Positions 3,302 through 64,000 of a DNA stretch of 64,000 bases are shown one piece after another. The notes beneath the pieces were generated by a model. It was given only the letters and a program-made list of their open reading frames with translations. It had not been told where the DNA came from and made no database searches. The first letter of the stretch is position 1, and each line of letters begins with the position of its first letter. Origin of the DNA: Lunularia cruciata (Eukaryota > Streptophyta > Marchantiopsida > Lunulariales > Lunulariaceae); contig OX419762.1 of NCBI GenBank assembly GCA_948567375.1, forward strand, positions 25,859,465-25,923,464, written 5' to 3'. The position numbers and the translations under genes were made by a program.

Positions 3302-9835
<6,534 letters not shown>

Positions 9836-35369: not shown

Positions 35370-35383
35370 TACCCCTTCCCTCA
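35370..35383 (-). other. Polypurine tract next to the 3' LTR (element 1)
   Basis: On the minus strand it reads TGAGGGAAGGGGTA immediately before TGTGATACCC. A purine run at the 3' LTR boundary primes plus-strand DNA in LTR retrotransposons. It independently fixes the LTR start. Confidence 0.8.
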
Positions 35384-36501: not shown

Positions 36502-36589
36502 CTTTTTATGCCTCCAAGCATCACCAAAGTACTTTGTCTTTGCCCATCTTGAATAAAATGTTGTGTTTAAGCTGATATGGCCCTATTTT

Positions 36590-42689: not shown

Positions 42690-43925
42690 CACCTAAAAGA
42701 GAAATAGTAGTAGTAAATGAACCCAAAGTGTAGGATTAGACAGTAAGTATCTTCTGGTCAGTTACATGAGCAATAAGGAGAAAGTGGGTTACAAATTGAA
42801 GGTGTAGATAGTGTACACATGCTTTCAATTACAATTCTTGATGAGGATATAGTAGAATTAGCAAAGGAATTGATAGTAGTTAGACCCAAAGTAAGAGAAG
42901 TAGGAGTGCAGGTGTCTTCAGATCAGTTATCTGAGATATTATAGAAGAGTGGGTTGGGAGATAAAGAGTTAGAAATGTTACCTATGACCTCAATTGTAGT
43001 TCATAGTGAAGAAGTAGTAGAAACAATGAAGGATTTAGTAGAATCAGATAGACCCAAAGAAGGAGAAGTAATAAGAGTATCATCGGGTTTCCAAGCCAAA
43101 GTTGAAGTAGACATCGGATCAAAGTGGTAACAAATTGAGATATGAAGAGGTAGATATGAAGAGCTGCATTTTCATTTTGGATCTATAGGTTTATAGAGTT
43201 GTTGTAAAACAATATAGTTGTTAGCAACTATCAATTGCTCTACTATTTAAAGGGGGCATTTGTAGTATTGTGTTGTTCAATATTCATAATTTTTGAAGAT
43301 AAATAAAGCAAAGTGTTGTGAAGCAATGCTTGTTGCTTGAGCATGATTTTGGGTATCAACTCTGTTTGTGCAGTTGTGAGTGTTTGAAGAATTCTAAAGT
43401 GCAAGTCAGTGTGTTTGTTGGATGTTGAATTTCACAGCCTTGGTCTTCATTCTTTGTGTTTGATCCTAAGTGAAGTGCATTCAGAGCAATGCCTTGACAG
43501 ATCTGAGAGGAATTGTAGTGTTGGTAGTATTTTGTAGTTATGAGTGTAGTGCAATGTTGATGTGAAGCAATTTTGATTGAGGAAGTTGTGCCTTCAGTGG
43601 AGAGGTGGAACACAATTCTGAGGCAAATTTGTTTTGAAGTGAAGTGCCGTCTTTGGGAGAATTTGAATCATCACAATCAAGATTTGTTTGGACAAAATTT
43701 GCTATGTTGTGATTATGAGTGTGTGAATTAGTGACAAGTTGTCAAGATTGAGTGCTTGTTACTCTCTTCTATGTGTGGTTTCTAGCCAAGAGACTAAAGA
43801 AGGAATCAAGAAGAACCACATTTGTGACATTTGACTTTGTATTTGACCAATTCTACATCGTATCTCTGCAAGAACAAACTTTACTTACCTGATTACCACA
43901 AAAGTGATATTTCTGGGTTGTCACA
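42690..43925 (+). mobile_element. LTR copy 6, 3' part only, plus strand, in gypsy element 1
   Basis: About 1.24 kb matching the 3' part of LTR copy 1 from GTAGTAAATGAACCCAAAG onward, through the ORF tail, the TATTTAAAGGGGGC box near 43,243 and AATAAAGCAAAG near 43,303, to GGTTGTCACA at 43,925. The 5' part is missing and the left junction (42,670-42,695) is not exact. No target duplication was found. It separates the gag zinc knuckles from the protease of element 1. Confidence 0.8.
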
Positions 43926-44470
43926 GCCGGGCTCCCTTCTTGAGGTCTCTCCTCCTCAAGTGTTATACAATTTATAGTTGTATCCTCTTTTGTCTGAAGT
44001 GCAACACGCTTAGCTTAGGCTTGTACATATTTCATAGGCGGCTTTGGGTTTGGTGGATGAGGGCATTGGTTGCCCGTATGACCCAATCCTTTACAGCTCC
44101 TACATAAAGGAACATACACAATTTGCCGTCTTGGCTCTGGACAATTTGGAGACCAATGTCCCATCAAGCCACAATTATAACATGCTACTGGTGCAACATT
44201 TTAAGGTCAATTTTGGTTGCAGGTCGGTGGTCTTCATGGGAGAGCATTTGAGTTATACTCCCTTGGTACAATGTGCTTGCTTGAGGTGATACCTCTAGAG
44301 TTTGGTACACCGCCTTCTCTTCCTCTTCTTGGTTCCATCCAGGGACCCAATCAATCTGCTACATTAGGAATGCAGTACAAGTATTGCATTCCATATTTGC
44401 ATGGCCTGACTTGCCACACATGGTGGACCATACATTGGATCTACCAAATGATGGATGCTTTCTTTGGTCC
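43926..44470 (-). pseudogene. Gypsy element 1 gag C-terminus with two zinc knuckles
   Basis: Minus strand near 44,182-44,064: CYNCGLMGHWSPNC, then VPLCRSCKGLGHTGNQC. Both fit the CX2CX4HX4C nucleocapsid knuckle that binds retrotransposon RNA. The surrounding frame is interrupted, and the region downstream is cut at 43,925 by LTR copy 6. Confidence 0.85.
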
Positions 44471-44484
44471 TTTGCCCTAATCAT

Positions 44485-45641
44485 CTAGATCTTAAAATCC
44501 AGAAACTCTTTTATAAGAGTATCCAACTTATTGTCTGCCTTATGTACACTCTTCACTAGGAGTGTCAGTAACTTATTTTTTTGTGTCTTCATATTCTTCT
44601 TGGCTATGACTCTTTTTTTTATTCCAAAGAACTTGAAGATGTGGAGGATTCTTCCAAAGAAGGAGATGTACTGCAAGAAGCTCTCCATGTAGGCTTCTTG
44701 CCTTTATTCTCCGGATTCCATTGGTTATTGGAAGAATGAGAGTGGGCCTCCTTATATCGGGCGACATGTTTGAAGACTTTATCTAGGGGAGTTATATTCC
44801 TCTCCCTAGCAAAGATACAAAGCTCTGGTGATAGTTCTCCCAAGAACCAAATAATGGCTTGGGCATCGGAGTAACCCACCACACTTGATTGCTTTGGGAC
44901 TTGGTTCAAGAGAGCCATGAACTGCTCAGAGTAGTCTCTCAACTTCTCCTTCTTTCCTTTGTCTAGATAGTTGAGTGCCACAAAGACACTCATGTTGTAA
45001 TTAACTTCCCAGAATCATTCCAAGAAATTGCTTCTCAAGTTTGCCCAATCTGCTAGTACAAACCCCTTTTGGGTTACATGCGTAAACCAACTCTGAGCCT
45101 ACTTCCGGAGCAGATTGGGAAAAATCCGTAGGCAATCCGCCAAGTCATGTTCCTTATTGGCAAAGGAAATGACTTCAAATTCTTTGATGAATTTCTCATA
45201 ATCTTTGTCTTGCTTTGTCCCCTTATACTTCTGATAGGCGTATCAGGTGACAAGTAATGAAGTCATTGTTCAACTTGGTGGAATCAGCTATGGTAAGGTT
45301 GAACTTGATGGAACCAAGGAATTTGCTGGTATTGACGTTGTGTTGACAGCCCAGGGGTTCCAATTGGTCAAGTTCAACATGGGGTCATCTTTGACAATTA
45401 CTTCTTCTCTGATTGTGTTGACTTCAACCTGAGTGGAAGCAAGAGTTTCAACATCCTTGGAGTGTTCTTCAAAATTCCTTTGAGCCAATTGAGGAATCAT
45501 GCATAGAAGATGTTGACACTCTTCTTCTATCAAACTTTGTGTTTTCTTTTCATGGATAAATTCTTTAATAAACTTGACTTCCTTGATAGCTTTTGGGGAA
45601 GTCGGTGTACTGGGTCGTAAAGAATATGTTTTCCTGCTCAA
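44485..45641 (-). pseudogene. Ty3/gypsy gag core (element 1), broken
   Basis: Minus-strand pieces: 45,288-45,641 (KFIKEFIHEKKTQSLIEEEC, FEEHSKDVETLASTQVEVNT), then 44,619-44,993 (SVFVALNYLDKGKKEKLRDY, then AIIWFLGELSPELCIFARER and DKVFKHVARYKEAHSHS). This is the capsid-like core that packages element RNA. The two pieces are separated by stops between 44,993 and 45,288. It aligns along its length with the gag fragment at 23.9-24.7 kb. The 44,485-44,688 stretch adds a basic, leucine-rich tail. Confidence 0.88.
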
Positions 45642-45931: not shown

Positions 45932-45951
45932 TATCCCCGGCAGTGGCACCA
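45932..45951 (-). other. tRNA-Asp-type primer binding site (element 1)
   Basis: On the minus strand it reads TGGTGCCACTGCCGGGGATA, seven bases after the TGTCACA end of the LTR. It is complementary to the 3' end of plant tRNA-Asp except at a few positions, two of them at CpG dinucleotides. The same primer is used by plant Athila/Tat-like elements. Confidence 0.8.
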
Positions 45952-45958
45952 AAAATCA

Positions 45959-46585
45959 TGTGACAACCCAAAAAATATCACTTTTGCAGTAATCAGGTAA
46001 GTAAAGTTTGTTCTCACAAAGATATGATTCAAAATTGGTCAAATACAAAGTAAAGTAACCAGATAAGCTCTTATTGGTTGCGTCTTTAATCTCTTAGGTA
46101 CAAACCACACCCAGAGTAACAAGCACTACTCACAGTCTTGTCACAACACTTTGTCACCCATAATCACAACTCTATCAAATCTTTCCAAACAATCTTGATT
46201 GTGATGATTTAGTCTCTCCCAAAAATGGCACCTCATTGCAAAATGACTTTGCCTCAAAATTATGTTCCATCCCTCCACTAAAGGCACAACTTCCTCGATC
46301 AAAATTGCTTCACATCAATACTACGCTACACTTACAATTGTCGAATACTACCAACACTACAATTCCTCTCAGATCTATCAAGGCATTGCTTTGATTGCAC
46401 TTCACTTAGGATCAAACACATAGAATGAAGATTATGGCTATGGAATCCAACATCTAACAAACACACTAATTTGCACTCAAAATTCTCCACACATTCACAA
46501 ACACAAACACAATGTCGATACTTGGAATTAAGCTCAAGTGATGAGCACTGAAATCAGAACTTTTCTTTATCTATTCTCAGAATTA
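45959..46585 (-). mobile_element. LTR copy 7 (segment a), 5' LTR of gypsy element 1
   Basis: The 3' 627 bp of the 5' LTR, ending TGTCACA at 45,959 beside the PBS. It is cut at 46,585 by plus-strand LTR copy 8. The LTR resumes at 55,106 and, after copy 9, at 60,165. Adjoining text matches uninterrupted copies across each break. Confidence 0.85.
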
Positions 46586-46926
46586 TGTGCATATATTTTT
46601 TGTTTTTTTCTGCTTTTTTAGCATTTGGAGAAGAAGTAAGCAAGAAAGCTGAATTATGAAGAAAAGAATGGACGGGAGTGTCTTTGGATGGAATCCAAAG
46701 AAGTCAACTTTGGGTCAAAGAATGGAATTACTCAGAAGGGGAGTACAATGGAACAAGTCCAAAGACCATCGTCTTTGGATTGGGCAGCGCAAGCCAATAC
46801 AAAGACCGTCTAACAACCTTTTTATGTGGCAAGAAAGTACACTTCAAGAAATGGTGGAGGCAGAAGAAGCATGTCTTGACAGTGATGGGACATCAACACG
46901 CAGAAGAAGGGGAAGACTCAGTCAAT

Positions 46927-47653
46927 ATGAGATTTTTTTTCAGTGTTTTCTCGTAGAGAGAGATGAAACGGCCCAAGGCAGAGCGGACCGCAACGCCAAC
47001 TCCCTGTCAGGAGTTGGCACGGATCCAAGCGCCGAGGGGAGGGGATAGCACTCGGCACCCATGCAGGACAACACATCCCGCTTACCGGCACCGCACCTCC
47101 CGCAAAATCCGAGCTTCTCAAACCCAGCACTCAAACGAAGCAAAGGGTTTGTGCAAGCCCCTCGCCAACTGAGGGGATCTCACACCACAAGCCCAAGACC
47201 TCGTCGGAGCGCCAAGTCCGATCACCAAGTCATTTGCAGGAACACGCGATGCCCGCTAATGAGACTCGTCGTCCCGCACAGATGCGAGTTGAGAAGTGCC
47301 ACCACTCACCGACGACGTGCGATGTGCTTGAGCACCTCACATGCAGGCCCCGGGGGGACCCCATCACCAACAAACTGAAACACACCGGCGCCCCATTGAG
47401 GGCGCCGGCCATCTGAATTGCTAGATCCATGGGAACTCCCGAGGCTGATCACTAATGCTGAACCCGACCAAACCCCAAGTCGCCAAGCGCCGAGCAAGTC
47501 CTCGCCACCTCACTAACGATGGAAAGTCCAAGCCGGCGCTTGGGAAGGAGCCCGAGCGGTTGATGAGCGCCGCCGGTGACCATGCCTCCGGATGCGGTTC
47601 CTCAAATTTTACAATGTTTGGTATGTTTGCATTGGATGTTTGCTTGTGTGTTC

Positions 47654-47654
<1 letters not shown>
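46927..47654 (-). other. ITS1-like segment
   Basis: Follows the 18S 3' end on the minus strand. Near 47,020 it contains GGCGCTTGGATCCGTGCCAA, close to the conserved green-plant ITS1 motif (GGCRY, spacer, GYGYCAAGGAA). The 5.8S gene is not present. Confidence 0.6.
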
Positions 47655-47722
<68 letters not shown>

Positions 47723-47837
47723 TTAAGAACTTCTCACAATGTCACCGGTGGCAAACCGCCGGCATCGCCGCAATCCAAACTCTTCACCGGACCATTCAAT
47801 CGGTAGGAGCAATAGGCGGTGTGTACAAAGGGCAGGG
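47655..47837 (-). rRNA. 18S rRNA 3'-end pseudogene fragment (~183 nt)
   Basis: The plus strand reads GATCCTTCCGCAGGTTCACC and then GGAAACCTTGTTACGACTTC, the complement of the universal 18S 3' end. Later CATTCAATCGGTAGGAGC and GGCGGTGTGTACAAAGGGC are recognisable. Several expected CpG positions are changed to CpA or TpG, so the copy is a decayed pseudogene. Confidence 0.93.
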
Positions 47838-47915
47838 AGTCAATTTTGAAATTGATTGAAGAATGACTGCAATTTGGGGTAATATAAAATTGCAATTGTG
47901 CAAGGGAAGTTGAAT

Positions 47916-50449
47916 ATTTCAAGTAGATTTCCTGTTCCTTTGAGTAGTCGTCCTATAGTAATGAGTGTCAAGAAGCCAATTGAGAGTGAAATTTTCTGAA
48001 ATCCAAAAGGGGTTAGAGTGTCTCGTCCAGGAGAGGGAATAGTCTCCAAAGAGCAAGAGAGCAGATCATGGTGAGGAAGGTCAAGAACACCCTCGCAGTA
48101 TGAAGTTTTGGAATTTGTAGGTTGGATGTCGTAGCAAGGATCGAGGTCTTGAATAGACTTTGTATTACTTTTTTAGCGTGGAACTAGAATTTCAATCTCA
48201 TAGGAGTCATGGTAGAGTTAGCTGCCAATAATTGTGAGGAAGGTCCTAAAGTCAAGGGGAAGAGAGGAAATCCGGCTCAATGGACTGAGTCAGATTGGAG
48301 GTTAGTGTTGGGGAAGGAAGAAAGAGAACCGATTGGGATCACCTTCTATTAGAAGTGTGATGTTGTAGAGGAGATTGCGGACATACAAAATTTGTTCTTT
48401 ACTCTGCGTACAATGAATGGTTACAAGGTGATGTCCTATTGGGACCCAATTAAACAAAGCATCATGAGGACAATAATAGCAATGTTCAAACTAGAACAAA
48501 AGACTTACGTGAACATGCAACATGCGGTCTTTTTCCACTAGATGTTTGCGGGAAAGAAGGTGAATTGGGCAAAGTGTTTTCACCAGCAAACAAGGCAGAT
48601 GGTTGTCAATTGGAAGAAAAATTCACCTCCACATTATTCTGCATCATTTGCAGCACATTTCTACTTTGGGTTGAATTTGTTGACAGCGGAGGAGAGGTGT
48701 CGCATGGTGTCACATTTTCATCTTGATTTGAGACGGGAAGTGGATTAAGAAGAACAACAATACATAGCACACCTACAAGCCAGTGATGATGACTTCTTGA
48801 GAACGGGACAACAGGAGATGGAAGAAGTCATAAGCCCAAAGATGAAGAAGCAGAATAACTCCAAAGCAGCAGAGTTGCCTCCAGCACAAAGAAAGACCCA
48901 AAGACTTGTTCTGTGGAGTAAGAAGGTAATGAAAGAAGAACCTTCGGAAACCAAGTCTGAAGGGGAGACAAAGTCTAGAGGAGAAGACTCAAAAGAAGCA
49001 GAACTCACGTTACAAAGTGGGGAATCCGGAAGTGAGAGTGAGGGTGAAGACAAAGTTCAGCAATCGGCTGAAGCAGAAGAAGATGAAGCATTTCATGCAA
49101 TAATTGACAATATACATAGAATGTGAATCACTGTGTAGCCCTGGTCATGGAAGAGAAGGAGGCTGAGAAAAAGAAGGAGTACCTTGCGGGGCCAAGTTCA
49201 GCAGGAAAGGAAGAAGGAAGCTCAGAAGTGTCGCTGAAATCAAGAAGATCGAGAGTTTGGAAGAAAGAGCCAATGGAAAAGGCAAAGTATGAAGATGGGA
49301 CCAAAGACAAAGAGAACTTTGGAGGAATACAATACTTATTGCATGTTGTAACTCCATTGTTGGGACTATTGAAAGAGCACCAGAAGGTAATCCCACAAGA
49401 TCATATGAAGGTGATGAATGAGTTGTAAGTGTTGAAGTATCTACTGGCTGAAGTGAAGGGATTGCCGGAGCGTGTAACCTGAAGAGACGAGGAAGTTGAA
49501 GAGCTTTGGGTGGATATAGTCTTGAGGAAGAAGACTTTTGAGAAGTTGCAAGAGATTTTTGAGTCAAGAGGGAGAGTAATGCAGCGGCAAGCCAAAGAGT
49601 TGAAGGAGCAGACGATGTTGCTGACCAAGATGAAAGAGGAGGTCAGTGAAGTGCGCATTGAGAGTACTCATGTAGAAGCAATGGCAGTAGTGATGGAGCA
49701 TGAGTTAGAAAGCTTGAGGAAGAGTGCAGCCGGGAAGGATCACGCATGGCAGAGAGAGGTGGCGGTCAGACATCAAGAAGAAGAAAGATTGAGAGAGTTG
49801 GTACAAAGTGCTGAGTTACAGAGCTCTCAGTATGTGGAGGAGAAGAAGATGCTCGTTGTTGAGTACAAAGATGAGTTGAAGATGTATCAGGAGGAGCTGA
49901 AGTCAGAGCAATCTTGAGGGTATGAATCAGAATCAATAGGAGAAGTTGTGGGAAATTTGAGAGCTATGCTGTGCACTAAGGCTGAAGGAAAATTGGATGA
50001 AGCAAGATTATACGAGTTAAAGTTGCTTGTGCAGAAAACTCGGAAGAGGAGAGCCAAAGATGTTGATATGAACACTCTACTAATCCAATTGAGGGAGCAA
50101 GTAGATAGGAAGATGTTAGAAGTAGGAGATAATGTCAGTTATCAGATTGGATTTAGTGAATTCAGAGTTAGAGAGAATTAGGAGTAGAGTGACAAAAGAG
50201 AAAAAGTCCAATGTTGTAGAAGTAGGAGTGCAAGTATCTTTGGGTTTAACATTCAAGACATCAGAGAAGAGTGGGTCAGGAGATAAAGAGATAGAAAGGT
50301 TACCCATGACCTCAATTTTAGTTCCTAGTGAAGAAGTAGTAGAAATAGTGAAGGATTTAGTAGAATCAGATATAACCAAAGAAGGAGAGGTAGTATGAAG
50401 ATCATTGGGTTTGAAAGTCAATGAGGAGATTGATATTGGATTGGAGTAG
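47916..50449 (+). pseudogene. LTR-borne coiled-coil ORF, subfamily I (copy 8)
   Basis: The start codon of the family (ATG in copies 3 and 9) is ATT here. Blocks: WTESDWRLVLGKEEREPIG near 48,290, KVNWAKCFHQQTRQMVVNWK then ASFAAHFYFGLNLLTAEERC (48,542-48,748), an acidic/Lys linker (48,797-49,126), SRVWKKEPMEKAKYEDG near 49,260, then a well preserved coil (49,510-49,917: EIFESRGRVMQRQAKELKEQ, SLRKSAAGKDHAWQREVAVR) and tail to 50,449. Several stops and a length not divisible by three show decay. The rDNA piece sits in the leader just upstream. Confidence 0.7.
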
Positions 50450-50869
50450 AAATAGTTTTGAGATAGGAAGAGGCAAATATGAAGAGGTGGTTTGTCATTA
50501 TGGTGTCATCGGGAAAATAATCTACACATAGTATTGGTGCCATTTGGTGTGAGTTTTCATGTTATTGAACTCAAGGGTTTATGTTTTGGTGAAACTGGTA
50601 GTTGTTTTGTGTTCTTGTCAGCTCAAGGATTTTCTCTTGTGTTGAGGGAGGGAGGAAATTGAGTGGTGGATTTTCTTTAATGTTACATAAGCTTGGGGTT
50701 TATTTGCATGTCACTTAAGCGCTGGAGTTTGTTTATGTTATAGAGGTCTCAAGAGTATTTTAATTAGCGGCAGTAGTAGAGGGTATTTGTGAAATTTGGC
50801 AGAAAACAGCCAAGATTTAGGAAAGGAAGTGCAGGGTTTTGGAGAAGAAGAAAGAGACCTGAACAGAGA

Positions 50870-52080
50870 GGATATTTTTGAGAGAAAGAGGTCTGGACAG
50901 GGAGAGAGGAATTTTGGAAGGGTTTGTGACTGGTGTGAATTGAAGGAGAGGAGATTTTTGGGAGAAAGAGGCCTAGAAGGAGAGGAGATTTTTGGGAGAA
51001 AGAGATCTGGAAGGAGAGGAGATTTTGTGAGAAAGAGGCCTGGAAGGAGAGGAGATTTTTGGGAGAAAGAGGTCTGGAAGGAGAGGAGATTTTGGGAGAA
51101 AGAGGTTTTGAAGGAAAGGAGATTTTTGGGAGAAAGAGGTCTGGAAGGAGAGGAGATTTTGGGAGAAAGAGGTTTTGAAGGAAAGGAGATTTTTGGAAGA
51201 AAGAGGCCTGGACAGGGAGAGAGGAATTTTGGAAGGCTTTGTGACTGGTGTGAATTGAAGGAGAGGAGATTTTTGGGAGAAAGAGGCCTGGACAGGGAGA
51301 GAGGAATTTTGGAAGGGTTTTGTGACTGGTGTGAATTGAAGGAGAGGAGATTTTTGGGAGAAAGAGGCCTGGAAGGAGAGGAGATTTTTGGGAGAAAGAG
51401 GTCTGGAAGGAGCGGAGATTTCAGGAGAAAGAGGTCTGGAAGGAGAGGGAGTTTTTGGGAGAAAGAGGTCTGGAAGGAGAGGAGATTTCGGGAGAAAGAG
51501 GTCTGGAAGGAGAGGAGATTTTTGGGAGAAAGAGGCCTGGACAGGGAGGATATTTTTGGAAGAAAGAGGCCTGGACAGGGAAAGAGGAATTTCAGAAGGG
51601 TTTGTGACTGGTGTGAATTGAAGGAGAGGAGATTTTTGGGAGAAAGAGGCCTGGATAGGAAGGGTATTTTTGGAAGAAAGAGGCCTGGACAGGGAGAGAG
51701 GAATTTTGGAAGGGTTTTGTGACTGGTGTAAATTGAAGGAGAGGAGATTTTTGGGGGAAAGAGGCCTAAACAGGGAGAGAGGAATTTTGGAAGGGTTTTG
51801 TGACTGGTGTGAATTGAAGGAGAGGAGATTTTTGTGAGAAAGAGGTTTGGAAGGAGAGGAGATTTTGGGAGAAAGAGGTCTGGAAGGAGAGGAGATTTTT
51901 GGGAGAAAGAGGCCTGGACAGGGAGGATATTTTTGAAAGAAAGAGGCCTGGACAGGGAGAGAGGAATTTTGAAATGGTTTGTGACTTGTGTGAATTGAAG
52001 GAGAGGAGATTTTTGGGAGAAAGAGACCTGGATAGGGAGGATATTTTTGGAAGAAAGAAGCCTGCACAGGAGAGAGACGA
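50870..52080 (+). repeat. Higher-order purine-rich tandem repeats
   Basis: A short unit, GAGGAGATTTTTGGGAGAAAG followed by AGGYCTGGA, is repeated dozens of times. It alternates with a longer unit that includes CAGGGAGAGAGGAATTTTGG and GTGACTGGTGTGAATTGAAG. Units are 36-45 and ~100 bp long and arranged in variable order. Two overlapping long frames result (50,796-51,722 plus, repeats of GRKRSGR and GERGLEGE; 50,973-52,130 minus), but both follow from the periodicity and are not evidence of a protein. Confidence 0.85.
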
Positions 52081-53040
52081 GAGAGGTTTTGTTTCGAGAG
52101 AAATGACTGCTTTGAGGAGAAGGGCTTCAAGGGAGATGATGTGAGCTATAGGGTCTACAGGGAATGAGTGTGCTTTGAAGGTGGTTCAGGAAGAGAGGTG
52201 AAATTTGGAAAGGATTTTGACTGGACTGTGCTTCGAAGAGAAAGGCTTTAGGAGAAATACAATGAGAGGGATAGTGTTTCGAGAGGAATGACAGTGCTTT
52301 AGGGACAGTGCATCGAGAGGAATGACAGTGTTTTAGGGACGTGCTTCAAGAGAAATGACTGTGCTTTGAGGAGAAGGGCTAGACAGGGAGATTTCACGAT
52401 GAGAAGAGTTTATGCCTGGAGAGAAAGAAAGGGAAAATTGCTAGGGTTTTGACAGGGAATTTGCTGCAGGGGAATTTTCAAAGGAAAAGCTTGGCTGTGA
52501 AGGAGCATTGAAGTCTAGACAGGAAAGCAGAGATTTTCAAGAGAGGCTTGGGCTTGTGCAAGAACAGCAAGAATTGTGGGAGAAAAGCCTGCACAGGAGA
52601 AATTTTTTAGAAGAGAAGGGTTTGGACAAAGGAACAAATAGGAGAGAGAAAATTTTGAGAAGAGAAGGGTTTGGACAGAGGAAGAAATAGGAGAGAGAAA
52701 TTTTTGAGTGGAAAGGGTTCTGGACAAAGGAAGTTGTAGGAGAAAATTCTTGAGAAAAGGCTTTTGCCTGAAACAGACCAGAGGAAGGATTTTCTTGCAG
52801 AGGAGGAGAATGACATAGCAAAGAGTTTAGGGGAATGCCAAAGAAGGGAGTGGAAGAGAAGGAAGTGACTTGTTTTTTGAGAAAGGTGTGAGCAATGTTT
52901 TCAGGAGAATGACATAACAAAGAGTCCGGGTGAATGACAGGGAAGGAGGTGAATAGTTTCAGGAAAAGAATAAAGAAGAAGTGGAACGAGAACCTATTGA
53001 CCAGAGAATAGACTTGGAGAAGATCTCAAACAGAGTCACA
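52081..53040. repeat. GA-rich, strand-biased tract
   Basis: The plus strand stays strongly purine-rich after the regular repeats end, with degenerate units such as AGAGGAATGACAGTG and AGAAGGGTTTGGACA. With 50,800-52,080 it makes about 2.2 kb of purine bias. No gene seen. Confidence 0.6.
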
Positions 53041-53350
53041 ACAGAACGGAGGGCTAAGAATTGTAAGGGTTTGGATGTAGAACTTGCTTAGTTCTCCTCC
53101 TTTGTGTACATGCTTCATCGTTGAAGATTTAGTCAATCATTGTAATGTTTGAAGCTGCTTAGGTTTCCCTTGAAAAATTTACAATTGCAAGGCTTGGGAT
53201 TACAATAAATATATACTTCCTTGATGAATGTGAATCTTCAGTCCATGAATAGTATAAATGAGAAGACTCTAGTCTTGGAGCTCTCAATCTTAGTCAAGCC
53301 GCACTTCCAAGACCTATCACTGACCTGATCATGATTATCTGAACCTGGCC

Positions 53351-54042
53351 TGTTACACCCATATGTGCATGTGTGTGGTATTGTGATATTTAACTTGGTA
53401 TTACAAGTACTTAAGAGATATTATTTATATAGAGATAAATGATGGTTCTATATTAGTCATGGTTAGCTAAAGTTAGTCATAGCTAGGATAGAGGGGATCT
53501 TACTTTAGAGGAAGTAGAAAAGATGAGCACCACTATTTTGGATTTTAGTGTGTTGACTTGGTATTATTCCTAGGTGTTTGGCTTTGAGGAAAGAGTTGAG
53601 AACTCTTGGGCCTGTAAGCCTTTTTGTTTTGGATTCTTCTTTAGTCCAAGGATAGCCCATGTGAAGGAATCCTTGACTTAGTGGTTGGGTCAAGATAGGA
53701 CCACATGCTTAGGGGAATATGCCCATGTGAATGGATATTCCTTTCTACTTTTTGACTTTACTTGACTTTTAGTCTAGTAACTTGAGTTACTATGGTAATT
53801 AGTAACTTTAGTACATAACTATTTCACAAGTATATAAACAAGGGGTGAGGAAGTACTCATCATCCTTTCATTTGCAACTATCTCTCTCTCATTGAGTTCT
53901 CTAGTGAGCAATGTCTTGAGTCTTGGAGTGTTAGCCTTGGAGGAGTATGATGGAGTTGGGGTTCCTTGCCTTCTTAGTCCATGGTGCGCTACCATAATAG
54001 CCATCAGGGGTTCATCTTGAGTGAGAGACAGGCCGGTTCACA
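53351..54042 (+). mobile_element. Solo LTR (692 bp) nested in the 3.86-kb insert
   Basis: Starts TGTTACACCC and ends GGTTCACA, flanked by GGCC (53,347-53,350 and 54,043-54,046). A TATATAAACAAGG box near 53,833 is followed by a pyrimidine-rich CTATCTCTCTCTC stretch, typical of plant LTR promoters. The surrounding host reads AACCTGGCC then ATAGGACTG if it is removed. Superfamily not determined; size fits Copia. Confidence 0.6.
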
Positions 54043-54046
54043 GGCC

Positions 54047-54360
54047 ATAGGACTGTGATTCGTTAGAGGAATTACATCAAAACCCATTGAATGCAACTTA
54101 ATATGGACAGAACTTTAACATTGTCAATGAAGCTTGAAGAATACGATTGCGCCAGTGAGGCCAATCCAAGAAGCCATTTACCATGAGCCTACATTTAGAA
54201 AGATTGGTAGCAAGCTGCTCTAGCAAGAAGGACTGCCAGCCGAGCAAGTAGGAAGAGCGTCTGATTACAAAAAGGCTTTGAATAGTTGACAAGCCAAGCA
54301 GTTTGAGCGCAAGCAGCTAGGTGCCTGGCGCACTCCTGAGACCAACCAATCCCCATGACA
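54047..54360 (-). pseudogene. Coding-like terminal segment (GWSQECARHLAA) of unknown origin
   Basis: On the minus strand from 54,360 the sequence encodes VMGIGWSQECARHLAACAQT, then NYSKPF, overlapping a 64-codon open frame (54,098-54,292) in another frame. The insert at 60,481-60,874 encodes GVVGFFWSEECVRHLAAS at its equivalent end. The shared W-S-x-E-C-x-R-H-L-A-A suggests homologous coding ends. I do not recognise the protein; a captured plant exon or the start of a long-decayed element protein are possible. Confidence 0.35.
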
Positions 54361-55105
54361 ATGGATCTGCAAGTAGGAAGAGTTGTTGTAGAATAGTATA
54401 GTAGTTAGTTAACTGTCAATTGCTCTTCTATTTAAGGGAAGCATTTGTAGTCTTATGTTGTCCAATATTCACAATTTCTGAAGATTGCTAAAGCAAAGTG
54501 CTAATTTCAGTGCTTGTTGCTTGAGCTTAATTCCAAGTATCAAATTTGCATGTGTGTTTGTGACTATGGAGAATTTTGAAGTGAAAATTAGTATGTTTGT
54601 TGGATGTTGGATTCCACAACCTTGATCTTCATTTTATGTGTTTGATCTTGAGTGAAGTGCAATCAAAGCAATGCCTCAACAGATCTGAAAGGAATTGTAG
54701 TGTTGGTAGTATTCTAAATTTGTGAGTGCAGTGTTGAGTTGATGTGAAGCAATTTTGTTCAAGGAAGTTCAGCCTTCAATGGAGGGGTGGAACAAAATTC
54801 TGAGGCAAAGTCATTTTGCAGTAAAATGCCATCTTCAGTAGAATCTGAATCATTGCAATCAAGATTTGTTTGGACAGAATTTGTTATGTTGTGATTATGT
54901 GTGTATATTTGTGACAAGTTGTCAAGATTGTGAGCTTGTTACTCTCTTTTGGGTGTATTTTCTACCTAAGAGATTAAAGATGCAACCAAGAAGAACTACT
55001 TGTTACTATTTGACTTTGTATTTAGACATTTTTGACCAATATCTCTACGGGAACAAACTTTACTTACCTGATTACTGCAAAAGTGATATTTGCCAAGTTG
55101 TCACA

Positions 55106-56428
55106 ACTGAACAAAAACATACTATGAATGTCTCCTTTAAATAGGCAGAGCTCTTCAGTATTTATCTAACAACTATACTGTTCTACAACAACTTTTCCTA
55201 CCTATAGATCCAAAATGACAATGCACCTCTTCATATCTACCTCTTCAAATCAAAATTGTTACTACTCTGATCCGATATCTACTTCTTCTTTGGCTTCCAA
55301 ACCCAAAGTATTCTCACATACTACTCTATCCTTGGGTTCCCCAACTACTAATTCTTTTACCAATTCTAACATCTCTTCACTCAAATCTTCAATTCCCATT
55401 ATGGGAATATACACACATCTTCTTCTTGCAACCCATCTTTCTCTAATATCTCTAATTTCAACTCCAATAATATTTGTACTCCTAGTTCTTCTACTTCTGG
55501 TTTTGCTCTTACATCCTTTTGAAGTTTATCTATTGCTAACTTAACTAAATCTAATCTGATTGTGATATTGTCCACTTCTCATATCTTTCTATCTACACAA
55601 GTTCTGAGACTAATTAGTAAAGCATTCAAGTCTTCAGCCAACTATTATTTCAAGATTTCATACTCCGCTATCTGTCTTTCCTTGGCTATGATATTTTGCT
55701 CTATTATTCCCTTTTTACTCCCCACTTCTCTCTTTAAATTCTCAATCACCTGAGTTTGTACTATTGCATCTACTCGTAGTACCTCTTTTTGCTCCTCTCC
55801 TTGGGTTATACTCTCCTTCAACTCCAAGTTCTCTTCTTCTAACCATGCCAGCACCTGCAACACAGTTTTTACATCAGGACACTCCAACTGCATTTCTTTC
55901 TTCTTCTCTTTCAGCTTCATCAACAACGGGCAGACAATATCTTGCAAATACTCCACCCCTCTGATCTGGTTCCTTTCTTCTTGTGGGCTTTTCTTGTTCT
56001 TTGCTCCTTCTTCACCGGACACTCTTCTCCTCAGCAAAAGTCGCTTGATTGAAATTGATTTCTTGCTCCCCAAACTCTCACTTTCCATTTCTCTTATTTG
56101 ACTTGGGCCCGCCTCATGCATCATGCTTCTCCTTGATCAGATACCTCTCTAAATGATAATATTCGTCTCCTCTTTCTTTGGAACTTCCTCTTCTTCCTTC
56201 TAGTTATCTTCTTCTACCATCTCCAACTTTCACTCTTCTTCCTTTGGTATTGGTTGCATCTCCATCCCATCCTCACTCTCGCTACTTGCTTCACCACTCT
56301 GGAACGTAAGTTCAGGTTCTTCTTCTCTCTCCAAGTCTTTTGACTTGCACTCGGCCTCACCTTCTCATTGTTCTTCCAACAATGCTATTACCACCAGGTC
56401 TTTCTTTGGGTTCACTTTTCAGGTCTTT
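55106..56428 (-). mobile_element. LTR copy 7 (segment b), 5' LTR of gypsy element 1
   Basis: Continues copy 7 from 46,585. Contains the leader, promoter part and subfamily II ORF tail and coil (55,645-56,124: GVEYLQDIVCPLLMKLKEKK, VLRVDAIVQTQVIENLKREV). A deletion near 55,635 removes much of the second coil compared with copies 2 and 5. It is cut at 56,429 by copy 9. Confidence 0.82.
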
Positions 56429-59400
56429 TGTGGTGCCCACATTTTTTGTTTTTTTTTTGTTTTGTTAGCATTTGGAGAAAAAGTAAGCAAGAAAGTTGAA
56501 TTGCAAAAGAAGGAATGGACAAGAGTAACTTGGGAGGAAATCCAAAGAAACCAACTTTGGGTCCGATGATGGAAGTACTCAAAAGAGAAGTCAGAAGAAG
56601 AAGTCCAAAGATCATCTTTTGATTGAGAAGCAAAGGCTGATACAAAGACCGTCTAACAACCTTTGTACATGGCAAGAAAGTACACTTCAAGAAACAGCAG
56701 AGGCAAAAGAAGCATGTCTTGATAGTGACAAGATAGCAACACGTAGAAGAAGGGGGAATAGATTTTGAAATCAACTAAAGAATGACTGCAATTTGGGGTA
56801 ATATAAAATTGCAATTGTGCAGGAGAAAGTTGAATATGTCAAGTAGATTTCCTGTCCCTCTGAGTAGTCGTCCTGCAGTAATGCATGTCAAGAAGCCAAT
56901 TGAGAGTGAAATTTTCCAAAATCCAGAAGGGGTTAGAGTGTCTCGTCCAAGAGAAGGAATATTCTTCTAGTGCCAAAGAACAAGAGAGCAATTCATGGCA
57001 AAGAAGGTCACGAACGCTCTGGTAGTACAAAGTTTTGCAATTTGTAGGTTGGATGTTGTAACAAGGATCAAAGTCTTGAATAGACTTTGTATTACTTTCT
57101 TAGCATGGAATTGGAATTTCAGTTTCCCAGGAGTCATGGCAAAGATAGCTGCCAATAATTGCAAGGAAGGCCTTGCAATCAAGGAGAAGAGAGGAAATCC
57201 AGCTCGATGGACTAAGTCGGATTGGAGGTTAATGTTGGGGAAAGAAGCAAGAGAATTGACAGAGATCACCTTCTATTGGAAGTGTGATGCTGCAGAGGAG
57301 ACGTCGGGCATACAAAAATTGTTCATTGCTCAGCGTACCACGAATGGTTACAAGGTGGAGTCCTATCGGGACCCAATTAAAAAAAGTATTGTGGGGACGA
57401 TAATGGCCATGTTCAAACCGGAACAAATGACTTACGTGAACATGCAACAAGCGGTCTTTTTCCACCGGATGTTTGCAAGAGTGAAGGTGAACTGGGCAAA
57501 GTGTTTCTACCAACAAACGAGGTAGATGGTGGTCAATTGGAGGACAAGTTCACCTCCACATTATTTTGCACCGTTTGCAGCACACTTCTACTTTGGGTTG
57601 AACTTGCTGATAGTGGAGGAGAGGCGTCGTATGGTGTCGCATTTCCATCCTAATTTGAGATGGGAAGTGGATGAAGAAGAGCAAAAATACATGGCACACT
57701 TGAGAGCCTGTGATGATCACTTCTTGAGGACAAGATAATGGAAGATGGAAGAAGTCACAAGTCCAAAGACAAAGAAGCGCAATAAACCCAAAGAAGTAAA
57801 GTCACTGCCAACACAAAGGAAGACCCAAAGACTGGTTTTGTAGAGTAAGAAGGTGGTGAAAGAAGAACTGTCAAAAACCGAGTCTGAAGAGGAGTCATAG
57901 TCTAGAAGAGAGGACTCAGAAGAAGCGGAACTCATGTTACAAAGTGAGGAATCTGGAAGCAAAAGTGAGGGTGAAGACGAGGTTCAGCAATCTACTTGAG
58001 AAGAAGAAGGGGATGAAGCTTGTCATGCAATGATTGACAGTGTACCATGAAAGAAGAATCATTGCATAGCCCTAGTTGTGGAAAAGAAGGGGGCTGAACA
58101 ACAAAAGGAGTATCTTGCGGGTCCGAGTTCAGTGGGTAAGGAAGAAGAAAGCTCGGAAGCAGTTTCGTGGAAGATACAAAGATCGCAACTTTGGCAGAAG
58201 GAGCCGGTGGAAGAGGTGAAGTACAAAGTTGGAGCCAAAGACAAAAAGAACTTTGGAGGAATAAAATATCTATCAAAGGTGGTCACTCCATTGTTGGGGC
58301 TGTTAAAAGAGCACCAGAAGGTAATTTCCCAAGATCATATGAAGGTGACAAATGAGCTGCAAGTGATGAAGTATCTACTGGCTGAAGTGAAGGATTTGTA
58401 GGAGCATGTAACCCAAAGAGATGAGAAAGTTGAAGAACTTCGGGTTGATACAGTCTTGAAGAAGAAGACTTTGGAGAAGTTGCAAGAGAGTTTTGAGTCA
58501 AGAGGGAGACAAATACAACATCAAGCCAAAGAATTGAAGGAGCAGGCGATGTTGCTGACCAAGATGAAAGACAAAGTCAGTGAAGTACGCATTGAGAGTA
58601 TTCATGTGAAGGCCATGGAAATAGTAATGGAGCAGGAGTTAGAAAGCTTGAGGAAAAGTGCAGTTGGGAAGGATCAAGCATGGCAAAGAGAGTTGGCAGT
58701 CAGAAATCAAGAAGAAGAAAGATTGCACGGGTTGGTACAAAGTGCTGAGTTGCAGAGTTCTCAGTATGCGGAGGAGAAGAAGATGCTTGCTATTGAGTAC
58801 AAAGATGAATTGAAGATGTACCAAGAAGAGTTGAAGGTAGAGCAATATCAAGGGTATGAGTCGGAATCAATAGGAGACATTGCGGGAAAATTGAGAGCTA
58901 TGTTGTGCACTAAGGCTAAAGGAAGATTGGAAGAAGCAAGATTACACAAGTTAAACTTTCTTGTGCAGGAAACTCAGAAGAGGAAAGCTAAAGATGTAGA
59001 TATGAATACTTTGTTGATCCGATTGAGGGAGAGAGTAGATTGGAAGATGTTAGAAGTAGGAGACAATGTCAGTCTCAGATTAGATTTAGTCAATTCAAAG
59101 TTAGAGAAAATTAGGAGTAGTGTGAAAGAGGAGAAGAAGTCCGATGTTGCAGAAGTAGGAATTCAAGTGTCATAAGACTTGTTATTTGACACATTAGAGA
59201 AGAGTGGGTCAGGAGATAAAGAGTTAGATAAGTCACCCCTTAGTGCAATTGTAGTTCCTAGTATAGAAGTAGTAGGAGTGAAGGAATTAATAGTTGTAGA
59301 TATACCCAAAGAAGGAGAAGTAGTAGGAAGATCATCGGGTTTGAAAGCCGATGATGAGGTAGACATCGGATCAGAGTAGAAACAAATTTTGAGATTTGAA

Positions 59401-60164
59401 GAGGCAGATATGAAGAGGTGGTTTGTCAATTTGGATCTGCAGGTAGGAAGAGATGTTAGGAAGTAATATAGTACAAAGAATTGTAGTTTGCTTCACTATT
59501 TAAGAGTGGCATTTGCAGTGAGATGTTGTTCAGTATTAATATTTCTGAAGATAGATAAAGCAAAGTGTTGTTTTTAGTGCTCGTTGCTTGAGCTTAATTC
59601 CGAGTGTCAATTTTGTGTTTGTGTTTGTGAGTGTGTGGAGAATTTTGAAGTGAAAGTTAGTGTGCCTATTGGATGTTGGATTCCATAGCCTTGATCTTCA
59701 TTTTGTGTCTGTGATCCTGAGTGAAGTGCAATCGGAGCAATGCCTTGACAAATCTGAGAGGAATTGTAGTGTTGATAGTATTCAGCATTTGTAAGTGCAT
59801 CACAAAGTTGATGTGAAGCATTTTAGATCAAGGAAGTTGTGCCTTCAGTGGAGGGGTGGAACACAATTCTGAGGTGAAGTTGTTTTGCAATGAAGTGTTG
59901 TCTTTGGGAGAATTTGAATCATCACAATCAAGATTTGTTTGGACAGAATTTGCTACATTGTGATTATAAGTGTGTATTTGTGACAAGTGGTCAAGATTGT
60001 GAGCTTGTCACACTCTTTTGGGTGTGGTTTCTACCTGAGAGACTAAAGAAGAACTCAAGAAGAACTACATGTTATTGTTTGACTTTATATTTGACCAATT
60101 CTGATTCAAGAACAAACTTTACTTACTTGATTACCACAAAAGTGATATTTGTTGGGTTGTCACA
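56429..60164 (+). mobile_element. LTR copy 9 (3,736 bp), solo, in gypsy element 1's LTR
   Basis: Starts TGTGGTGCCC and ends GGGTTGTCACA, flanked by TCTTT (56,424-56,428) and TCTTC (60,165-60,169). Uninterrupted copies read GGTCTTCCAAGGTCTC at this site, so the 5-bp duplication is real with one change. There is no PBS or internal region. It carries the longest subfamily I ORF, a TATTTAAGA box near 59,503, a GATAAAGCAAAG block, and the common 3' part. Confidence 0.92.
56836..59379 (+). pseudogene. LTR-borne coiled-coil ORF, subfamily I (copy 9), best preserved
   Basis: From ATG at 56,836 (MSSRFPVPLSSRP) to TAG at 59,379 is 848 codons with only a handful of internal stops, e.g. near 56,968, 57,523, 57,736 and 59,173. 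Order: N-terminal globular part (VVQSFAICRLDVVTRIKVLN, FLAWNWNFSFPGVMAKIAAN, FFHRMFARVKVNWAKCFYQQ, FAPFAAHFYFGLNLL), acidic/Lys linker, YLSKVVTPLLGLLKEHQKV, then a coil of about 200 residues (58,456-59,175: LQESFESRGRQIQHQAKELK, YKDELKMYQEELKVEQYQG) and a tail (GEVVGRSSGLKADDEVDIGS). The high hydrophilic coil content suggests an elongated multimeric protein. No enzyme motif seen. It lies in U3, upstream of the LTR promoter. Confidence 0.78.
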
Positions 60165-60480
60165 TCTTCCATGGTCTCACCACCGCTTCTTCTTCTGTGG
60201 GTCGACTCCTCTTCTTTGACTTTGTAGCATTCACCGCCAATCTCACGCTCTGCCTTGTATGTGCATAGTACTTGTCATTGCTTCTGATCTGAAGAATATA
60301 TTGTCGCTCGTCCATATTAGCATCTCTTCTTAAGTTGGGATGGAAGTGCGACACCATCTTATGTCATTCTGCCACATTCAATAGATTCAATCCCATGTAG
60401 AAATGGGCTGCAAATAGCACAATGTAGTGTGGAGGTGATTTATCCCACAAATTCCACACCATTTGTCTTGTGCATTGATG
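60165..60480 (-). mobile_element. LTR copy 7 (segment c), 5' LTR of gypsy element 1
   Basis: Continues segment b after copy 9. On the minus strand it encodes VSHFHPNLRRDANMDERQYI and VLFAAHFYMGLNLLNVAE of the subfamily II ORF. It stops at 60,480, after GTGCATTGATG, where unrelated sequence begins; the remaining ~1.5 kb of this LTR is missing. Confidence 0.8.
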
Positions 60481-61292: not shown

Positions 61293-64000
61293 TATGACAA
61301 CCCAACAAATATCACTTTTACGGTAATCAGGTAAGTAAAGTTCATTCCCATAGAGATGCTAGTCAGAAATGTCCAAATACAAAGCAAAGTAACAATTTCA
61401 GTACTTCTTGGGTTCCTCTTTAATCTCTCAGGTAGAAACCACACCTAGAAGAGAGTAACAAGCACTGACTTGTAGTCTCGTCACAACAATTTATCACACT
61501 TAATCACAACTCCATCAAATCTTTCCAAACAATCTTGATTGTGATGATTCAGTCTTTCCCAAAAATGGCACTTCACTACAAAACAACTTCACCTTAGAAT
61601 TGTGTTCCACCCCTCCATTGAAGGCACAACTTCCTTGATCAAAATTACTTCACATCAACACTGCACTGCACTCACAATTGCAAAATACTACCAACACTAC
61701 AATTCCTCTCAAAACTGTCAAGGCATTGCTCCGATTGCACTTCACTTAGGATCAAACACATAGAATGAAGATCAAGGCTGTGGAATCCAACATCCAACAT
61801 CCAACAAGTACATTGATTTGCACTTTGAAATTCTTTACACACTCACAAACACACACACAATGTTGATACTTGGAATCAAGCTCAAGCAACGAGCACTAAA
61901 ATCAGCACTTTGCTTTATCTATTCTCAGAAATTATGATCATTGAACAAAAACATACTATGAATGTCATCTTTAAATAGGCAGAGCACTCAATAGTTAACT
62001 AACAACTATTCCGTTTCCTAACAACTCTTCCTACCTACAAATCTAAAATGACAATGCACCTCTTCATATCTGCCCTTTAAATCTCAAAATTGTTACTACT
62101 CCAATCTGATGTCTACCTCTTCCTTGGCTTCCAAACCCAAGGTTACCTTACATACTAATTTATCCTTGTGTTTCACAACTACTTACTCTTCTACTAATTC
62201 TAACACTTCTTCTTCCTGATCTACAATTCCCGCCATGAGCAATCTACACACATCTTCTTTCTAAAACTTATCTTTCTCTAATATCTCCAATGGTAACTCC
62301 ACGGATACTTGTACTCCTATCTCATCAACTTTGAGCTTTGCTCTTACATCCTTCCAAAGTTTATCTATCTCTCACTTAACTAAATCCAATTTAATTGTGA
62401 TATTGTCTTCCACTTCCAATATCTTCCTATCTACATGAGTTCTGAGACTAATCAACAAAGCATTCAAATCTTTATCCTTTGCATTTCTCCTCCTCGTCGC
62501 TTGCACCAACAACCTTAAATTGTGTAATCTTGTTTCTTCAATCTGCACACTGGCTTCTATACTCAGCATCATGTTCATCTTGATTATGATCTCCTTTAGT
62601 GGCTTGAGCCTCATCCTTCTCTCCCGTTCTCAATCCGCCTGCCAATCTTCCCTATACATTGCCAATTCTGCCTCAAATTTGGCTTTCATCGTCTCCTTCT
62701 CTTTCTCCTTCTGAACAATCTTGTCTTCTAAATTACAAAGTAACTCCCTTAACCTCTCTTCCTCTCTATATCTCACTGTCAGCTCTCTTTGCCAAAGTTG
62801 CTTCTTCTTTTCTACACTCTCCATCACTCTATCAAGTTCTTGCTATTTCTTTACTACTCTTGCCATAGCATGAATGATTTCTAATTGTGAATCAGCAAAT
62901 TGTTGTTTCAAGATTTCATACTCAGCTATCTATCTTTCCCTTGCTATAACATTTTGCTCTATTAATCACTCTTTACTTCCCACTTCCCTTTTAAGATTCT
63001 CAATTACTCGGTTTGTACTATTGCATCTACTCATAGTACTTCCTTTTGCTCCTCTCCTTGGGTTATGATCTTCTTCAACTCCGAGTTCTCTTTTTTAACT
63101 TAACCAATACCTACAACACAGTCCTTTACCTCCGGACACTCCAACTGCATCTCTTTCTTCTTTCCCTCCAACTTCATCAGCAACGGGCATACAACCTCCC
63201 ACAGATACTCCACTCCTCCGCTTTGGTCTACCTCAGCTTGCGGGCTTTTCTCTTTCTTCACTTCTTCTTCACTTGACACTCTTCTTCTTAGCCACAATCA
63301 CCTGATTGGGATGGATTCTTCACTTCCTAAACTTCCACTTTCCACTTCTCTTCTTCTTCTTGGCCCTGCCTCACACATCACCTTCCATCTGGAATGGACA
63401 CCTCTCTAAATGGTCACCCTCTTCTCTTCCTTCTCTGGAACTTCATTGTCTTGACTCAGGTTACCTTCTTCCACCATCTCCATCTTTCCTTCTTCCTCCT
63501 CTGGTACAAGATGCATCTCCTTTCCATCTTCATTCTTGCTACTCCCTTCACCACTCTGTTATGTGAGTTTAGGTTCTTCCTCCTTCTCCAAGTCTTCTGA
63601 CTTGTATTCGGCTTCCTCCTCTAATTCTTTGCCTGACAATGTAATCACCATCAGGTCCTTCCTTGGCTTTATTTTTTTGATCTTCCAAGGTCTTGTTGCC
63701 GCTACTTCTTCTTCTTCTCCTCTTTGACTCCTCTTCTTTGACTTTGAAGTATTCAACCCCAAACACACGCTCTGCCCCGTCTACGCATAGTACTTGTCAT
63801 TGCTTCTGATCTGCAGAATGTACTGCTGCTCCTCCACATCAGCATCTCGTATCAAGTCAGGATGGAAGTACAACACCATCTTGTATCTTTCCGCTATGTT
63901 CAGCAAATTCAGTCCCAAATAGAAATGGGCTGCAAATGGCACAATATAGTGCACAAGCAACTTGTCTTGCAAGTTTCACACCATTTTTCCTTTGCGTTGA
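61293..64000 (-). mobile_element. LTR copy 10, minus strand, runs off the window
   Basis: The low-coordinate end reads TATGACAACCC, i.e. the family end TGTGACAACCC with one change. 2,708 bp are visible, covering U5/R, the promoter region (box near 61,970 on the minus strand) and most of the subfamily II ORF. The adjacent host is an integrase tail, so it is an independent insertion. The candidate 5-bp duplication CCTCC (61,288-61,292) cannot be tested without the other end. Confidence 0.85.
62110..64000 (-). pseudogene. LTR-borne coiled-coil ORF, subfamily II (copy 10, partial)
   Basis: Minus-strand blocks: IVPFAAHFYLGLNLLNIAER (63,781-63,972), acidic/Lys linker near 63,560-63,768, GVEYLWEVVCPLLMKLEGKK near 63,200, coil segments at 62,630-62,827 (LEDKIVQKEKEKETMKAKFE) and 62,372-62,614. 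The N-terminus lies beyond the window end. Frameshifts break it as in the other copies. Confidence 0.7.

What the first reader, a model, noticed from the sequence alone, without database searches (positions are those of the whole stretch)
56429..60164. A 3.7-kb LTR that encodes its own ~850-codon coiled-coil protein in U3
Seen: ten copies in 44 kb share TGTGGTACCC...GTTGTCACA ends. In copy 2 and copy 7 the end is followed by a PBS and gag; in copy 4 the start follows a polypurine tract. So the whole 3.7-kb unit is an LTR. Inside, in sense and upstream of the TATA-like box, lies a reading frame of ~850 codons, still recognisable in at least five copies. Known parallel: genes in the 3' LTR of some retroviruses, such as the MMTV superantigen gene; large ORFs in plant LTRs are rare. 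Inference: the protein was translated from a 3' reading frame that extends into the LTR, possibly as an accessory or structural factor.
Basis: partly seen in the sequence, partly recalled or inferred. Interest (0 to 1): 0.88.

Follow-up and report, generated by a model that had tools for sequence, protein, structure and literature searches.

The report
Long protein gene inside retrotransposon LTR
In a liverwort genome, the 3.7-kb end repeats of an old retrotransposon family carry a conserved gene for a roughly 800-residue coiled-coil protein, which is unusual because such repeats are usually taken to hold only control signals.

Summary
Ten copies of one LTR family lie in 20-64 kb. B1 (25148-28899, uninterrupted, 3,752 bp) and E2's 5' LTR run into a PBS. 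In E2, gag (Retrotrans_gag 4.9e-7) and pol remnants in the order RT-RNase H-integrase follow, and the pol stop overlaps the PPT directly before the 3' LTR. B2 is a 3,657-bp solo LTR with a perfect 5-bp TSD. So the 3.7-kb unit is an LTR.

The reading frame lies wholly inside it: from 56836 (ATG1), or more likely the invariant ATG at 56995, to a TAG at 59377-59379 found in 7 of 7 copies examined. A1 has nine premature stops; no copy here is intact. Two subfamilies, about 40% identical in protein, share it. dN/dS between them is 0.26-0.29 (0.62-0.64 with transitions weighted); shifted frames give 0.78-1.22, unweighted. Gag gives 0.44.

The host is a liverwort, judged by its GCN5 gene. No homologue was found. 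I read it as a selected U3-encoded accessory protein, probably nuclear and oligomeric; expression and function are inferred. New variant of a known kind.

The parts
56429..60164 (+). A1: complete 3,736-bp solo LTR (TGTGGTGCCC...GTTGTCACA), flanks TCTTT/TCTTC
56836..59379 (+). U3 reading frame of A1 from ATG1 to the invariant TAG: 847 codons, nine premature stops, no frameshift relative to the other copies
56995..56997 (+). ATG54, Met in all five full-length copies aligned; likely true start (coding signal before it is weak)
56802..56808 (+). TATAAAA, 30-37 nt before ATG1 in the 6 copies whose leader is in the window; candidate promoter of the ORF
   Evidence: longest invariant run, permutation P 0.064
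56995..57756 (+). N-terminal domain, residues 54-307, the best-conserved large part between subfamilies; fold unknown
   Evidence: AF2 pLDDT 42
57763..57777 (+). basic motif PKxKK, residues 310-314, four invariant residues in five copies; NLS-like by my reading
58261..59115 (+). helical region, residues 476-760; heptad signal significant in 476-580, not in 581-690 or 691-762 taken alone
59497..59503 (+). TATTTAA, invariant in 9 of 9 copies that hold it; likely promoter of the genomic RNA, so U3 is about 3.1 kb
30050..33797 (-). A2: full-length LTR copy with the ORF; flanks ATTGT/GTTGT
46586..55105 (+). A3: full-length LTR copy with the ORF, interrupted by 46913-47834 and 50504-54361
25148..28899 (-). 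B1: full-length uninterrupted LTR (3,752 bp) with the ORF, followed by a PBS and gag-like sequence (element E1)
25123..25140 (-). PBS of E1, TGGCACCACTGCCAAGGA
38809..42465 (-). B2: 3,657-bp solo LTR with the ORF, perfect TSD GTGCA
61293..64000 (-). B3: LTR copy cut by the window end; ORF residues 226 onward
45959..60480 (-). 5' LTR of element E2 from LTR position about 1076 to its end, in pieces 60165-60480, 55108-56428 and 45959-46586 around nested A1 and A3
45934..45951 (-). PBS of E2, TGGTGCCACTGCCGGGGA
44045..45236 (-). gag of E2: capsid stretch 44622-45236 and two CCHC knuckles 44045-44188
35381..38501 (-). pol remnants of E2 in the order RT, RNase H, integrase; stop codon at 35381-35383
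   Evidence: 4 of 8 pieces scanned match Pfam
35370..35382 (-). polypurine tract GAGGGAAGGGGTA directly before the 3' LTR
34335..35369 (-). start of the 3' LTR of E2 (truncated), with ORF residues 57-207
20058..21952 (+). C1: short LTR variant (1,895 bp) that keeps only the C-terminal end of the ORF; flanks GTAGT/ATAGT
42700..43925 (+). C2: 5'-truncated LTR copy similar to C1

Best explanation
Shown: an old Ty3/gypsy family of a liverwort has LTRs of about 3.7 kb whose U3 is almost filled by one sense ORF (794-847 codons). That ORF kept its reading frame and amino-acid sequence while two subfamilies diverged. From established LTR replication, U3 is copied to both ends, so a complete element carries the gene twice; solo LTRs carry it here too. 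Inferred: the protein is an accessory factor made as a separate product. The route is either the conserved TATAAAA just before the ORF with polyadenylation in R of the same LTR, or a spliced RNA from the 5' LTR. Inferred: the conserved N-terminal domain, the basic NLS-like motif and the long coiled coil point to a nuclear, self-associating protein that acts on the element's own RNA or particles (export, packaging or assembly), as CERV does in RNA export for Cer1. Inferred origin: a former env-position ORF became part of U3 when a PPT came to lie directly behind pol.
For: LTR identity: two LTR-PBS junctions, one PPT-LTR junction, and a solo LTR with a perfect TSD; gag and RT-RH-INT in E2. Coding: stop depletion; NG dN/dS 0.26-0.29 for the six pairs of A1-A3 with B1 or B2, 0.35-0.43 within A, 0.21-0.29 among B1, B2 and B3; over all 26 pairs, 0.14-0.43 in 23 and not computable through saturation in 3. 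In A1-B1 third codon positions differ by 0.56, second by 0.34. On alignments made from DNA alone, A1 against B1 and B2 gives 0.33 and 0.36 in frame, 0.78-1.22 in the two shifted frames. U3 ORF B1-E2 0.35, gag E1-E2 0.44. Ends: Met54 in 5 of 5, TAG in 7 of 7. Coiled coil: residues 476-760 have a period of 3.50, none of 2,000 permutations as strong; AF2 helices of 195 and 96 residues, mean pLDDT 79. Invariant P310 K311 K313 K314. TATAAAA in 6 of 6.
Against: No copy in the window is intact. With transitions weighted, dN/dS rises to 0.44-0.64; the shifted-frame controls were not rerun with that weighting. Within A the contrast is modest: 0.38-0.47 in frame against 0.60-0.87 shifted. One antisense frame gives pN/pS 0.61-0.68 in the four comparisons. 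An MK-like count does not show the excess of nonsynonymous singletons that neutral decay after insertion should give (fixed N/S 2.09, singletons 1.51). Four premature stop positions (9 of 69 stops) are shared by two or three copies, so some may descend from broken sources. The heptad signal is not significant in 581-690 (P 0.49) or 691-762 (P 0.43) alone. The TATAAAA run is weak alone (P 0.064) and lies so near ATG1 that only ATG54 would have a leader. C1 lacks the ORF. No transcript, no homologue, no usable N-terminal model.
Confidence: 0.6

Rival explanations
1. The ORF is the usual plant env-position ORF (eORF-3'F) with an env-like or movement-type role, now lying inside the LTR; nothing nuclear.
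For: Position directly behind pol and sense orientation; most OTA elements are reported to have eORFs (PMC6317226, passages).
Against: It lies wholly in U3, not between pol and the LTR. The helical coiled coil and the basic motif do not suggest an envelope. No transmembrane predictor was run.
Confidence: 0.2
2. The ORF is a captured host gene or another element's gene that rides in the LTR as a passenger and was constrained by host or trans function only.
For: C1 lives without it; a related 60-residue fragment lies in a GCN5 intron at 4716-4895, outside these LTRs.
Against: No homologue among the candidates scored in a collection that holds Marchantia and Riccia proteins. Two subfamilies kept it through their divergence.
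Confidence: 0.15
3. It is not a gene: purine-rich LTR sequence is open by composition.
For: The strand is rich in G and A at 58-60 kb, and purine-rich sequence stays open more easily.
Against: The other two sense frames have 52 and 79 stops; codon-position divergence and dN/dS follow the frame; Met54 and TAG are invariant.
Confidence: 0.03

Closest known systems
Extra ORFs in sense between pol and the 3' LTR of plant Ty3/gypsy elements (eORF-3'F, aORF-3S; Athila env-like ORFs)
   Same: Sense ORF downstream of pol, without a conserved domain; reported in most OTA elements, some of which also have LTRs up to about 5 kb (PMC6317226, passages; PMC7264820, first of three parts).
   Different: There the ORF is placed in the internal region (PMC7264820). 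Here pol ends at the PPT and the ORF is wholly in U3.
Retroviral genes in U3: MMTV sag, lentiviral nef, foamy virus bel2/bet (recalled)
   Same: Accessory gene in the U3 of the LTR; works alike in position and duplication.
   Different: No sequence link seen in Pfam or PDB searches; host kingdom differs.
CERV of C. elegans Cer1 (PMC10309623, passages)
   Same: Accessory protein of an LTR retrotransposon with a nuclear role in genomic RNA export; analogy for function only.
   Different: Made from a spliced mRNA; the Cer1 LTRs described are 491-492 bp; homology was not tested.
Retrosat2 of rice (PMC3485330, passages)
   Same: LTRs over 3.2 kb and an extra ORF of uncertain function.
   Different: ORF0 lies upstream of gag-pol; that paper states that LTRs do not code for replication enzymes.

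Membership tests
Ty3/gypsy LTR retrotransposon | LTR with TG...CA, PBS, PPT, short TSD | tested here: met
Ty3/gypsy LTR retrotransposon | gag, and pol in the order RT-RNase H-integrase | tested here: met
   RNase H and integrase zinc finger are above Pfam cut-offs, RVT_1 (3.3e-4) and rve (0.019) below; 4 of 8 pieces scanned had no match, among them 37701-38087, which I read as RT
OTA (Ogre/Tat/Athila) lineage | RT-RH-INT phylogeny | not tested
Plant eORF-3'F class | sense ORF of at least 250 codons downstream of the polyprotein | tested here: met
   length of the frame read through its stops, since all copies are broken
Plant eORF-3'F class | location in the internal region, before the 3' LTR (as in PMC7264820) | tested here: not met
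   it lies inside the LTR
Plant mobile domain, Transposase_28 or Athila ORF-1 proteins | Pfam match | tested here: not met
   no such match, E up to 10, 10 and 1 (HMMER filters drop most matches above 0.1)
U3-encoded retroviral gene (sag/nef type) | ORF within U3 of a bona fide LTR | tested here: met
   analogy of position, not homology
U3-encoded retroviral gene (sag/nef type) | own transcript and protein product | not testable with these tools
   no RNA or protein data

The most novel reading that the evidence does not exclude
The LTR is itself a self-contained gene: a U3-internal promoter (TATAAAA), an 800-residue ORF and the R poly(A) site. Every solo LTR left by recombination would then stay a potential gene for the element's helper protein, acting in trans on ORF-less relatives such as C1.
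Probability: 0.25. Interest if true: 0.82.

Novelty: new variant of a known kind. Interest (0 to 1): 0.62.

Why it matters
Plant LTRs are usually treated as non-coding, and solo LTRs as inert. A conserved gene inside the U3 of a bryophyte gypsy element would be a plant counterpart, by convergence, of U3 genes of animal retroviruses. Annotation that looks for extra ORFs only between pol and the 3' LTR could miss or mislabel such genes. It would also explain why this family has LTRs of 3.7 kb, and it offers a testable origin: a shift of the PPT.

Tried and rejected
Conifer origin, my first guess, was dropped: the GCN5 control matches two liverworts with 448 and 445 bits (64-66% over 98% of the query), against 254 bits or less for the other listed plants (120 of 1,679 hits listed). 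Motif patterns from recall found gag knuckles and LINE-like RT but missed the gypsy pol, which one search then showed. Relation of the ORF to the element's own gag: no blastp hit better than E 0.23. The AF2 model of the N-terminal domain (pLDDT 42) was too poor, so no fold search was run. Spliced expression: by eye, with no predictor, an AG that could serve as acceptor between TATAAAA and ATG1 is present in A1, A2 and B1 but not at one place in all six leaders. An ORF end at 59466 was dropped for the TAG at 59377-59379. I first counted 60481-61292 as part of E2's 5' LTR; one search shows that it is other DNA.

Not in print: ten answered paper searches, open-licence PMC only, several with capped lists. 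None of the listings named a plant LTR with a coding ORF. I saw passages or parts of nine papers: PMC7264820, PMC6317226, PMC10508981, PMC3485330, PMC2996948, PMC3762812, PMC10309623, PMC12885004 and PMC9985172; no whole text.
Full report
What the unit is. The 3,736-bp stretch 56429-60164 (A1) has a full-length relative at 30050-33797 on the other strand (84.6% identity) and eight further full or partial relatives in 20-64 kb. A1 and A3 sit inside the 5' LTR of one element, E2. Ends are TG...CA. B2 (3,657 bp) is flanked by GTGCA on both sides; A1, A2 and C1 match in 4 of 5 flanking bases and A3 in 3 of 5.

E2 can be followed on the minus strand. Its 5' LTR is present from LTR position about 1076 (60480) to its end at 45959; its first third is not in the window, and 60481-61292 is other DNA. 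A PBS follows (45951-45934), then gag (Retrotrans_gag E 4.9e-7, above the cut-off) and two CCHC knuckles. Beyond C2 and B2 lie pol remnants: RVT_1 weak (3.3e-4), RNase H 1.6e-26, integrase zinc finger 2.4e-11, integrase core weak (0.019), in the Ty3/gypsy order; 4 of 8 pieces scanned had no match. That gag and pol belong to one element is inferred from order and strand. The pol stop TGA overlaps the PPT GAGGGAAGGGGTA, and the 3' LTR starts at 35369; about 1 kb of it is left. B1 is an uninterrupted LTR (3,752 bp) with a PBS and gag-like sequence behind it. So the long unit is the LTR of the elements themselves, and no room is left for an ORF between pol and the 3' LTR of E2.

The reading frame. 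In A1 it runs in one frame. A frameshift-tolerant alignment finds it end to end in A1, A2, A3, B1 and B2 and partly in B3, E2 5' LTR and E2 3' LTR; protein identity to A1 is 72-74% for A copies and 35-49% for the others. Every copy is broken: 8-13 stops and 4-8 shifts in A2, A3, B1 and B2, 20 and 2 in B3, 6 and 1 in E2 5' LTR, 1 and 2 in E2 3' LTR, counted to A1's 59466. The frame's end is a TAG at 59377-59379, aligned in 7 of 7 copies examined; beyond it the copies fall into different frames. Met54 is invariant in the five rows, and the stretch before it shows little coding signal between A1 and B1 (codon positions differ 0.53, 0.51, 0.64). I take ATG54 as the likelier start.

Selection. On alignments guided by the protein, Nei-Gojobori dN/dS is 0.26-0.29 for the six pairs of A1-A3 with B1 or B2 and 0.35-0.43 within A; over all 26 pairs it is 0.14-0.43 in 23 and saturated in 3. 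Synonymous sites are near saturation between A and B. On DNA-only alignments of A1 with A2, A3, B1 and B2 the ORF frame gives 0.47, 0.38, 0.33 and 0.36; the shifted frames give 0.60-0.87 within A and 0.78-1.22 against B. Limited to codons 54-847 and with transitions weighted fourfold, values are 0.44-0.64; the bootstrap upper bound is at or below 0.80 in all 13 pairs tried. The shifted frames were not rerun with that weighting. One antisense frame gives pN/pS 0.61-0.68; the antisense frames of A1 have 34, 22 and 36 stops. As a yardstick, gag between E1 and E2 (203 codons) gives 0.44 (0.27-0.78), and the U3 ORF between B1 and E2 (334 codons) gives 0.35. Codons fixed between A (three copies) and B (two copies) number 74, with N/S 2.09 against a site ratio of 3.85; singletons in A copies have 1.51. 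Decay after insertion should have raised the singleton ratio; it did not, either because synonymous changes between A and B are saturated or because the A copies come from separate living lineages.

Protein. Residues 54-307 form the best-conserved large part. Scanning 13 fragments against Pfam at E up to 10 gave only two weak matches, one fragment each (PRS7_OB 0.073, DUF1104 0.17). PKxKK at 310-314 is invariant and resembles a nuclear signal (my reading). An acidic, serine-rich linker follows (26% D+E, 13% S in A1). Residues 476-760 show a hydrophobic period of 3.50 (0 of 2,000 permutations as strong); 476-580 shows it alone, 581-690 and 691-762 do not. AF2 gives helices of 195 and 96 residues (mean pLDDT 79, pTM 0.32). 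The N-terminal model is unusable. No homologue: 7,996 candidates scored in each of two searches of 5.8 billion proteins, none at E 0.01 and 0.1, and none in the PDB at E 1. A GCN5 control in the same collection returned 1,679 proteins with two liverworts first, so plants are held there; no near-identical host protein was listed.

Signals. TATAAAA lies 30-37 nt before ATG1 in the 6 copies whose leader is in the window and nowhere else in those leaders; as the longest invariant run it has permutation P 0.064. TATTTAA follows the ORF in 9 of 9 copies that hold this part. This fits two start sites, one for the ORF and one for the genomic RNA, but no RNA data exist here.

Short variant. C1 is a 1,895-bp LTR that keeps only the C-terminal end of the frame. 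It suits a factor that acts in trans, or one that is dispensable.

Second family. A 60-residue fragment in a GCN5 intron (4716-4895) matches residues 209-269 at about 38% (alignment score 102 against a best of 48 in 12 shuffles). So the domain is wider than this LTR family.

Comparison. A review places extra plant ORFs in the internal region (PMC7264820, first of three parts and passages); a survey describes OTA elements with eORFs and LTRs of up to about 5 kb (PMC6317226, passages). Its eORF search would call this one eORF-3'F without saying that it is in the LTR, so earlier sightings under that name are possible. MMTV sag, nef and bet are parallels from recall. Liverwort genome papers (PMC12885004, passages; PMC9985172, 12 of 29 places shown) report Tat domains and gypsy bursts but, in the passages seen, no LTR gene.

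Limits. One 64-kb window; no genome-wide copies, because the genome search was unanswered seven times; no species name; lineage not placed by a tree.

Noticed in passing
window 3302-9731 (+): Gene for a GCN5-type histone acetyltransferase in at least ten exon pieces; best matches Riccia and Marchantia, so the host is a liverwort.
   Followed up: partly
window 4716-4895 (+): 60-residue fragment in a GCN5 intron about 38% identical to residues 209-269 of the LTR ORF: a more distant family with the same domain.
   Followed up: partly
window 46913-47834: 922-bp insertion in LTR copy A3 that holds the 3' end of 18S rRNA (minus strand, Rfam 117 bits) and, by my reading, ITS1: a stray piece of rDNA.
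   Followed up: partly
window 60481-61292 (-): 812 bp beside E2's 5' LTR fragment that are not LTR; one frame reads like the C-terminus of a gypsy integrase of another element (my reading).
   Followed up: no
window 50942-52074: Tandem array of a 34-bp G-rich unit (31 copies) with overlapping long frames on both strands, inside the second insertion in A3.
   Followed up: no
window 11006-13122 (-) and 18793-22777 (+): Two copies of a LINE-like element: endonuclease-like Pfam hit below cut-off at 12482-13186 and FIDDL motifs at 11421 and 22355; the second copy is split by LTR C1.
   Followed up: no
window 59398-59421 and aligned places: Purine-rich stretch behind the ORF stop, largely conserved in the seven copies aligned although out of frame; could be a relic of an older PPT.
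   Followed up: no
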